This document shows, piece by piece, positions 1-1,684 of a DNA stretch of 64,000 bases. The position numbers were made by a program, and so were the translations under genes. The notes below the pieces were generated by a model, which ran no database searches, was not told the DNA's origin, and saw nothing but the letters and a program-made list of their open reading frames with translations. The DNA lies in assembly GCA_007134025.1 (NCBI GenBank), contig SLLR01000061.1, positions 1-64,000 on the forward strand. Reading direction: 5' to 3'. The DNA comes from Desulfuromonadaceae bacterium. Lineage in GTDB: Bacteria; Desulfobacterota; Desulfuromonadia; Desulfuromonadales; Syntrophotaleaceae. Positions within the stretch are counted from its first letter, which is position 1; each line of letters begins with the position of its first letter.

Positions 1-681
1 GGCGGCGACGGCCCTTTCGGGCGGGAATTGTGGCGTACCGACGGTACGGCCCTGGGCACGGAGTTGGTCAAGGATATTCACCCCGGCCCGGGTTCATCCC
101 GCCCCATGAGTCTTTTCCTGTACGACGACATTCTGTTGTTTTCAGCCAACGACGGATCTTCGGGGTTTGAACTGTGGCGTAGCGACGGAACCGCAGAAGG
201 TACCTGGAAGGTCAGGGACATTTACCCCGGACCGGGGAGTTCCTATCCGCTGTTCATTGTTCGCTGTGGCGATCGCGCCTTGTTCTCTGCTGACGATGGC
301 GCGCACGGCAAGGAGCTGTGGGTGACGGACGGTACCACCGAAGGCACGGTCATGGTCAAGGACATTCATCCCGGTTGGCAAGGCTCGCGGCCCTATTATC
401 TGACCCGGATCGGCGATCAGGTATTCTTTTCTGCCGACGACGGGTTGCATGGTCGGGAACTCTGGATGAGTGATGGAACGCCAGGCGGCACCCGGATGGT
501 CAAGGACATCAATCGGGGCCGGGGCGGATCTTCCCTTTCACATTTTTCCGCGGTCAACGGCCTGCTGTTCTTTCGGGCCAACGACGGTCTTCATGGTCGG
601 GAGCTGTGGGTCAGCGACGGAACCGCTGAGGGCACCCGCATGGTCAAGGATATCAACCCGGGATCGTCGCCGTCGGGCTGA
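1..681 (+). CDS. ELWxxDGT-repeat protein, 5' end missing
   Basis: This is the C-terminal part of a protein that runs in from the left edge; the frame is open from base 1 and stops with TGA at 679-681. It holds five copies of a roughly 48-residue repeat with the core ELWxxDGTxxGT, followed by VKDI and a Pro/Gly/Ser-rich turn, then an F-x-A-N/D-DG-x-x-G segment. Such repeats occur in predicted beta-propeller-like secreted or surface proteins of bacteria; the biochemical role is not known. No C-terminal anchor or secretion domain follows the last repeat. The start and any signal peptide lie outside the window. Confidence 0.8.
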   Translation, partial: GGDGPFGRELWRTDGTALGTELVKDIHPGPGSSRPMSLFLYDDILLFSANDGSSGFELWRSDGTAEGTWKVRDIYPGPGSSYPLFIVRCGDRALFSADDGAHGKELWVTDGTTEGTVMVKDIHPGWQGSRPYYLTRIGDQVFFSADDGLHGRELWMSDGTPGGTRMVKDINRGRGGSSLSHFSAVNGLLFFRANDGLHGRELWVSDGTAEGTRMVKDINPGSSPSG

Positions 682-714: not shown

Positions 715-1347
715 CTAAACAAGCGTGAAGACGGCCATCTGGCTGGGGCTTCCCAGGTCGGGGTCGGCAGGGCCGATGTCGGTAAAGATCGCCCGATAAC
801 CGTTGCGGGCCGCCGCACCGCAAGCCCATTTGCGAAATTTGAAACGACTCCACTCAAAACGGTGATCGGCGTGGCGCAGGACTCCCGGCGCCAGACCGTA
901 AAGGGGGTTGTAGTCGGCGTTGGGGGTGGTGACAACGAGGATTTTGGGGCGGAAGTCGCAAAGGATGCTTTTTTCGACGACGGAGAGGCGGCCGGGCTCG
1001 ATGTGCTCGATGGTTTCCAGCAGTACTGCTCCCTGATACTCGGCAAAGTCAGACAGGGAGCAGGTGAAGGAAGCCAGCTGCAGGGCCAGGCGGCGATTCT
1101 CGCCAAGATGACCGGCGGCGGAAAGTAGCTGGTGCGCCGCCGAAAGGGCTTTCGGGGCGATGTCGATGCCGGTGATGCGGTTGAACAGTGGTTCCCGGGC
1201 CAGTCGAAGCAGCAGTTCTCCTCCACCACAGCCGAGGTCGAGAACGGTTTTTACGCCACCCTGGAGCAGCGCACGAACCACGCTCTCCAGTCGTTGTTCA
1301 TGCAGGGAAGTGGCCGTTTCGTCCCGCAGGTCGTCGTAGCGTTTCAT
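715..1347 (-). CDS. Solo Hen1-like 3'-terminal RNA ribose 2'-O-methyltransferase domain
   Basis: The 210-residue protein is a class I SAM methyltransferase: motif I is LDLGCGGGE (residues 36-44) and an acidic IDIAP follows at 61-65. It carries the features that mark the Hen1 family: E111, E114 and H115 in ETIEH, then TTPNADYN, and H162 within RHADHRFEW. In bacterial Hen1 these two Glu and two His bind the metal that positions the terminal ribose 2'-OH. Bacterial Hen1 is normally about 450-500 residues, with an N-terminal ligase-activating domain, and is encoded beside Pnkp. Here only the methyltransferase domain is present and no Pnkp or ligase gene is nearby. ATG at 1347 has GGGGA upstream. 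The family call is from motifs; RNA substrate and role are inferred. Confidence 0.75.
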   Translation of the reverse strand: MKRYDDLRDETATSLHEQRLESVVRALLQGGVKTVLDLGCGGGELLLRLAREPLFNRITGIDIAPKALSAAHQLLSAAGHLGENRRLALQLASFTCSLSDFAEYQGAVLLETIEHIEPGRLSVVEKSILCDFRPKILVVTTPNADYNPLYGLAPGVLRHADHRFEWSRFKFRKWACGAAARNGYRAIFTDIGPADPDLGSPSQMAVFTLV

Positions 1348-1393
1348 CGAAAAAAATCCCCTTGGACCTGACGGCTGTGCTGCTGCCGGAGCG

Positions 1394-1433
1394 AAAATAA
1401 AAACAGGGACCAGCTGGCTGGCTGGTCCCTGTT
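1394..1433 (-). terminator. Rho-independent terminator after initiator tRNA
   Basis: On the minus strand the arms at 1421-1433 and 1402-1414 form a 13-bp perfect stem (core ACAGGGACCAGC) with a 6-nt loop, followed by TTTTATTTT. It lies just 3' of the tRNA gene and before the methyltransferase gene. Confidence 0.85.
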
Positions 1434-1441
1434 GGTACGCT

Positions 1442-1518
<77 letters not shown>

Positions 1519-1684
1519 TCACTGAGGTGTGAAGATAAGGGATAGCCGCGGGATTGTCAACCCCTTGGCGGAAAAAATATGACAAAGGCCGGCAGCCCCA
1601 CGATCTCAAGCGGTTCGATGGAAAGCTTGCTGGCGGGACCGGAGCCTGCTACAATTCCAAACATCTTATCCGCTGGAGCTTTGC

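What the first reader, a model, noticed from the sequence alone, without database searches (positions are those of the whole stretch)
715..1347. Solo Hen1-type methyltransferase domain without Pnkp
The two-Glu, two-His metal site (E111, E114, H115, H162) and RHADHRFEW mark this as a Hen1 RNA 3'-end methyltransferase. The partner Pnkp and the Hen1 N-terminal ligase-activating domain are absent here, and the next gene on its strand is initiator tRNA. It may protect RNA ends outside the known Pnkp/Hen1 repair system, or act on tRNA fragments.
Basis: partly seen in the sequence, partly recalled or inferred. Interest (0 to 1): 0.72.

Follow-up and report, generated by a model that had tools for sequence, protein, structure and literature searches.

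The report
Stand-alone bacterial Hen1 RNA-end methyltransferase
This gene encodes the catalytic half of Hen1, an enzyme that seals RNA 3' ends with a methyl group, and it belongs to a distinct lineage, scattered among bacteria, that has no sign of the repair partner Pnkp; this points to an RNA-end protection role whose target is still unknown.

Summary
Window 1347..715 (-) encodes a 210-aa protein that is the Hen1 methyltransferase domain and nothing else. It matches TIGR04074 at E 2.5e-59 (profile positions 259-461 of 462) and bacterial Hen1 structures at about 40% identity. The metal ligands E111/E114/H115/H162 are invariant in 27 relatives. Pnkp, the Hen1 N-terminal domain, and (by Pfam PF09414) an ATP-dependent RNA ligase were not found in the whole genome. 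The new result is that this is not a stray fragment. Twenty-nine short Hen1 proteins from Desulfuromonadales, alpha-, beta- and gammaproteobacteria and a Myxococcota MAG form one clade (support 100/98), apart from the long Hen1 proteins. Pnkp lies beside 52 of 54 long hen1 genes but beside 0 of 34 short ones, and full-length Pnkp is absent from 13 of 13 short-hen1 genomes tested but present in 3 of 3 controls. The clade has fixed differences (ETxEH against EVxEH at the metal site; invariant H16). The initiator-tRNA neighbour means little: a terminator separates the genes, and they are adjacent only within this genus. Most likely function: SAM- and Mn/Mg-dependent 2'-O-methylation of RNA 3' ends outside Pnkp/Hen1 repair. 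Substrate unknown. New variant of a known kind.

The parts
715..1347 (-). short Hen1 (methyltransferase domain only), 210 aa, ATG start
1216..1245 (-). SAM-binding motif VLDLGCGGGE (residues 35-44)
   Evidence: sequence; D37, G39, C40, G41 and G43 invariant
1003..1017 (-). metal site part 1, E111-T-I-E114-H115; T112 is diagnostic of the short clade (V in all long Hen1)
850..876 (-). RHADHRFEW (residues 158-166) with the fourth metal ligand H162
1357..1363 (-). putative ribosome binding site AAGGGGA, 9 nt before the ATG
   Evidence: sequence
1402..1433 (-). intrinsic terminator of the tRNA gene (13-bp stem, 6-nt loop, T tract), which separates the tRNA from hen1; also present in the same-genus relative
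1442..1518 (-). initiator tRNA-Met(CAT), neighbour, judged not part of the system
1532..1560 (-). sigma-70-like promoter of the tRNA gene (TTGACA-17-TATCTT)

Best explanation
The gene encodes a stand-alone Hen1. It uses SAM and a Mn2+/Mg2+ ion held by E111, E114, H115 and H162 to methylate the 2'-O of the 3'-terminal ribose of an RNA that has free 2'- and 3'-hydroxyls. Unlike all well-studied bacterial Hen1, it works without Pnkp or Rnl. It most likely caps processed, undamaged or cleaved RNA 3' ends against 3'-to-5' exonucleases or further cleavage, rather than preparing ends for ligation. Shown here: the domain, fold, invariant active site, monophyletic short lineage, absence of partners and purifying selection. 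Inferred from homology: the chemistry (about 0.85). Inferred by elimination: end protection outside repair (about 0.5). Unknown: the RNA substrate.
For: Fold and sequence: best matches are bacterial Hen1 methyltransferase domains (E 1e-45; model pLDDT 88.9; TM 0.82-0.84 to 3jwg/3jwh/3jwj). Metal ligands are invariant in 27 of 27 short proteins. The short clade is monophyletic: 29 rows, UFboot/SH-aLRT 100/98, in 99% of bootstrap trees (99). Fixed differences: T112 in 100% of short and V in 100% of long; H16 in 100% of short; position 96 is Y in 98% of long but variable in short. Pnkp is next to 52 of 54 long and 0 of 34 short hen1 loci. Full-length Pnkp: 0 of 78 genomes of the order, 0 of 13 other short-hen1 genomes, 3 of 3 long controls. 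No PF09414 RNA ligase or Hen1_L domain in the own genome. dN/dS is 0.19-0.25.
Against: No activity has been measured, and no substrate or conserved partner gene was found. The distribution is patchy (20 of 136 genomes of the order; 3 of 297 in the phylum sample, one of them long), which suggests an accessory role. RtcB and archease are present (archease read), so participation in another repair route in trans is not excluded.
Confidence: 0.6

Rival explanations
1. It is the methylation step of an RNA repair route assembled in trans, with RtcB/archease or an unrecognised ligase plus end-healing enzymes encoded elsewhere, as in Pnkp1-Rnl-Hen1, where hen1 lies far from the pnkp1-rnl operon.
For: RtcB with an adjacent archease is present in the own genome. 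A precedent for unlinked hen1 exists (PMC4411300).
Against: Three of 16 hen1-bearing genomes have no RtcB hit, and RtcB is as common without hen1 (51 of 62) as with it (13 of 16). No Pnkp-type ligase segment (profile beyond about 430) scores in any of 78 genomes, and no PF09414 ligase is found in the own genome. From general knowledge, RtcB joins 3'-phosphate or cyclic-phosphate ends, whereas Hen1 needs free 2'- and 3'-OH. Short Hen1 lacks the ligase-binding half.
Confidence: 0.15
2. It is a decaying remnant of a Pnkp/Hen1 operon that lost the partner and the N-terminal half.
For: The domain is exactly the C-terminal half of long Hen1. The distribution is patchy.
Against: All sampled short forms make one well-supported clade rather than nesting repeatedly among long ones. 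The active site is invariant over deep divergence, selection is purifying, and clade-specific residues are fixed.
Confidence: 0.05
3. It has a Hen1 fold and metal site but a changed substrate (for example the CCA end of intact tRNA, a specific small RNA, or a non-RNA diol), so that it is regulatory or even toxic rather than protective.
For: The metal-site neighbour is changed (T112 for V) and several positions fixed in long Hen1 are free in the short clade. No partner is conserved.
Against: The whole Hen1 signature is kept, including TTPN, RHxDHRFEW and the two-Glu two-His site. There is no antitoxin-like conserved neighbour.
Confidence: 0.15
4. It is functionally tied to the adjacent initiator tRNA (a shared operon, or methylation of tRNA-fMet fragments).
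For: Same strand, 94 bp apart, and conserved in the one same-genus relative.
Against: The tRNA has its own promoter-like site and a strong terminator before hen1. In all other loci examined hen1 sits beside unrelated genes.
Confidence: 0.04

Closest known systems
Bacterial Hen1 of the Pnkp/Hen1 repair cassette (TIGR04074; CthHen1, AvaHen1)
   Same: Methyltransferase domain, fold, metal site, RHxDHRFEW motif, about 40% identity
   Different: Lacks the N-terminal ligase-activating half; no Pnkp in the genome; scores 201 bits against the equivalog cutoff of 340; separate clade with ETxEH instead of EVxEH
Hen1 of the Pnkp1-Rnl-Hen1 complex (4xrp, PMC4411300)
   Same: hen1 not in an operon with pnkp; same methyltransferase fold (TM about 0.67)
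   Different: That Hen1 is about 436 aa with an N-terminal Rnl-activating domain; sequence match to ours is only E 6e-8; no Rnl-type ligase found here
Eukaryotic HEN1 / HENMT1 (3htx, 5wy0, 4xcx)
   Same: Same catalytic domain and metal ligands; acts without Pnkp, protecting small RNAs
   Different: About 30% identity; works with Argonaute/Piwi RNA interference; no Piwi protein in any of 78 related genomes

Membership tests
Hen1 methyltransferase superfamily (RNA 3'-terminal ribose 2'-O-methyltransferase domain) | Sequence and fold of the Hen1 methyltransferase domain | tested here: met
Hen1 methyltransferase superfamily (RNA 3'-terminal ribose 2'-O-methyltransferase domain) | Two-Glu two-His metal site | tested here: met
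   E111, E114, H115 and H162 invariant in 27 short Hen1, equivalent to E132/E135/H136/H181 of HENMT1
Hen1 methyltransferase superfamily (RNA 3'-terminal ribose 2'-O-methyltransferase domain) | Transfers methyl from SAM to the 2'-O of an RNA 3' end, metal dependent | not testable with these tools
   needs an enzyme assay
Bacterial Hen1 equivalog of Pnkp/Hen1 repair (TIGR04074) | Full-length match above the curated cutoff (340 bits) | tested here: not met
   201 bits, profile 259-461 only
Bacterial Hen1 equivalog of Pnkp/Hen1 repair (TIGR04074) | N-terminal ligase-activating domain Hen1_L (PF12623) | tested here: not met
   Absent from the protein and the genome
Bacterial Hen1 equivalog of Pnkp/Hen1 repair (TIGR04074) | Operon with Pnkp | tested here: not met
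   0 of 34 short loci against 52 of 54 long loci; no full-length Pnkp in 78 genomes of the order or 13 other short-hen1 genomes
Pnkp1-Rnl-Hen1 repair system | Separate Rnl and Pnkp1 genes in the genome | tested here: inconclusive
   No Pnkp-type ligase segment and no PF09414 ligase in the own genome; T4-Pnkp-like kinase not searched specifically
RNA-interference-type HEN1 (Argonaute partner) | Argonaute/Piwi protein in the genome | tested here: not met
   0 of 78 genomes with PF02171

The most novel reading that the evidence does not exclude
Short Hen1 is a dedicated bacterial RNA 3'-end capping enzyme, independent of RNA repair and of Argonaute, that 2'-O-methylates a defined set of cellular RNAs (small RNAs or stress-generated fragments) in scattered proteobacteria and Desulfuromonadales.
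Probability: 0.4. Interest if true: 0.75.

Novelty: new variant of a known kind. Interest (0 to 1): 0.5.

Why it matters
Studied bacterial Hen1 proteins act inside RNA repair complexes, and eukaryotic Hen1 proteins protect small RNAs. A separate bacterial lineage that keeps only the catalytic domain, has no ligase or Pnkp, and is under selection would be the bacterial case of Hen1 working alone. It makes a concrete question testable: do some bacteria mark RNA 3' ends with 2'-O-methyl outside repair? Such ends could also be under-counted in sRNA-seq libraries that depend on 3' ligation.

Tried and rejected
Operon with tRNA-fMet: rejected, because a terminator lies between the genes and the adjacency is confined to one genus. 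Pnkp elsewhere in the genome: only a 3.9e-6 hit to profile positions 187-266 (metallophosphatase part), judged a generic phosphatase. RtcB partnership: no association (13 of 16 against 51 of 62). Argonaute partnership: no Piwi domains. Phage or defence cargo: no match in 50,697 phage records; viral contigs give only distant, long or fused Hen1; the PADLOC hit is a generic methyltransferase part of mad2 covering residues 24-80. Conserved neighbours: none general. SulP-UspA recurs three times but the stress protein is promiscuous, found on 1374 plasmids, and does not track hen1 in the order (4 genomes with both, about 2.2 expected). The weak second hit in the own genome (L002/L213, 31% identity) is a 245-aa generic methyltransferase. 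Several key papers (Shuman 2010-2011; Burroughs and Aravind 2016) were sought but are not held, so the claim that the short lineage is undescribed is limited to the held library.

Full report
Observation. The minus-strand ORF 1347..715 is 210 codons with an ATG start and an AAGGGGA ribosome-binding-like site 9 nt upstream. It hits TIGR04074 (bacter_Hen1) at E 2.5e-59, but only over profile positions 259-461 of 462 and at 201 bits against a curated cutoff of 340. Pfam sees only generic methyltransferase domains. Against solved structures it matches bacterial Hen1 methyltransferase domains 3jwh/3jwj/3jwg/3jwi (E 6e-45 to 2e-41), human HENMT1 (about 3e-22) and Arabidopsis HEN1 (1e-20). A model from the family alignment has pLDDT 88.9, and its best PDB fold matches are the same bacterial Hen1 domains, TM 0.82-0.84. 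E111, E114, H115 and H162 are invariant in 27 short relatives. In human HENMT1 the ligands are E132, E135, H136 and H181 (PMC10781085), and the alignment puts H181 opposite H162, since human has D at the H159 position.

Completeness of the 'solo' claim. Upstream is tRNA-Met(CAT), so no N-terminal half precedes the ORF. In the whole genome (2.25 Mb, 99% complete) there is no Hen1_L domain, no PF09414 RNA ligase, and no Pnkp beyond an 80-position phosphatase-like hit. RtcB is present, and the gene before it reads as archease. No Piwi domain exists in 78 related genomes.

The gene is a member of a lineage, not a fragment. Short Hen1 occurs in 20 of 136 genomes of the order (14 of 53 genera), nearly all in open frames of about 200-270 codons (one frame of 545 and one of 303 run on upstream of the conserved start; one match is cut by a contig end). 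It also occurs in Rhodoferax, a Gallionellaceae MAG, Marinobacter halophilus, Luteimonas suaedae, Brevundimonas, Paracoccaceae, Aurantimonas, Falsiroseomonas, a Myxococcota MAG and a Comamonas plasmid. The genome record nearest the window is a Desulfuromonadales MAG. Open-frame lengths of the Hen1 relatives are clearly bimodal, mostly 200-310 codons against about 460 or more. In a tree of the shared methyltransferase part, 29 short proteins form one clade against 42 long proteins, UFboot/SH-aLRT 100/98, in 99% of 200 bootstrap trees (99 SH-aLRT with 58 long). The bootstrap correlation was 0.980 rather than the 0.99 wanted, so the values are rough. The root is unknown, so which form is ancestral is open.

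Controlled test of the missing partner. Within the fetched flanks, Pnkp lies beside 52 of 54 long hen1 loci and 0 of 34 short ones (one short contig is counted twice, and some short contigs are small). At whole-genome level, full-length Pnkp above cutoff is found in 3 of 3 long-hen1 control genomes, 0 of 13 short-hen1 genomes reached through other loci and 0 of 78 in the order.

Sequence signature. Comparing 29 short with 58 long proteins, the catalytic residues are shared, but position 112, inside the metal motif, is T in all short and V in all long proteins. H16 is invariant in short and variable in long. Y at position 96 and A at position 132, near-invariant in long, are free in short. These may reflect a changed substrate context, but no structural test of that was made. 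The gene is under purifying selection: same-genus dN/dS 0.25 (NG86) or 0.19 (YN00).

Surroundings. The tRNA gene has a promoter-like site (1560-1532) and a 13-bp-stem terminator (1433-1402) before hen1. The same hairpin is in the same-genus relative, and the tRNA is not beside hen1 in other genera. Neighbours elsewhere are diverse: release factor 3, a peroxidase-family protein (731 aa, KatG-like by reading), GGDEF/EAL, a TonB receptor, ArsD-like, universal stress protein. No gene family recurs across most loci. A SulP transporter plus universal stress protein lies just upstream in three distant hosts, but the stress protein is widespread on plasmids.

Mechanism. By homology the protein should bind SAM at VLDLGCG and a Mn2+/Mg2+ ion at E111/E114/H115/H162, which also binds the 2'- and 3'-hydroxyls of an RNA 3' end, and transfer methyl to the 2'-O (homologous mechanism from PMC10781085). 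[quoted passage not shown] That half is absent here, as is any detected ATP-dependent RNA ligase. RtcB is not enriched with hen1 and is not found in three hen1-bearing genomes. End protection outside repair is therefore the best remaining reading, but it is reached by elimination, and the substrate is unknown.

Novelty. The catalytic domain is well known. A monophyletic partner-free bacterial lineage is not described in any held paper I found, but central papers by Shuman and by Burroughs and Aravind are not held, so prior mention of stand-alone Hen1 cannot be excluded. I rate it a new variant of a known kind.

Noticed in passing
L038 5209-7662; L073 1842-4181; L167 3609-5964: A SulP anion transporter plus a two-domain universal stress protein lies upstream of short hen1 on the same strand in Desulfuromonadales, Brevundimonas abyssalis and a Comamonas plasmid (SulP 75-80% identical). 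It is absent from 54 long-hen1 loci, but the stress protein is also on 1374 plasmids.
   Followed up: partly
L037 7190-8776; L039 7991-8215; L167 9837-11444: Release factor 3 (prfC) lies directly upstream of short hen1 in one Desulfuromonadales genome, a broken prfC remnant sits there in its sister genome, and prfC is two genes downstream on the Comamonas plasmid.
   Followed up: partly
L167 7516-14460: Comamonas plasmid stress/translation cluster: DksA-like zinc finger, short hen1, cfa, RF3, diguanylate cyclase, adenylate-kinase-like protein, NUDIX.
   Followed up: no
L029 7875-8138; L031 8843-9190; L034 10702-10971: An 87-115 aa protein with no Pfam match overlaps the start of hen1 by 4 bp in two genomes; a homologue lies 2 kb away in a third.
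   Followed up: partly
window 1-681: Repeat protein with ELWxTDGTxxGTxxVKDIxPG units, cut off by the contig start, convergent with hen1.
   Followed up: no
L125 and L126, 8001 onward: Viral contigs encode 830-870 aa frames with a distant Hen1-like segment in the middle, possibly fused RNA-end enzymes.
   Followed up: no
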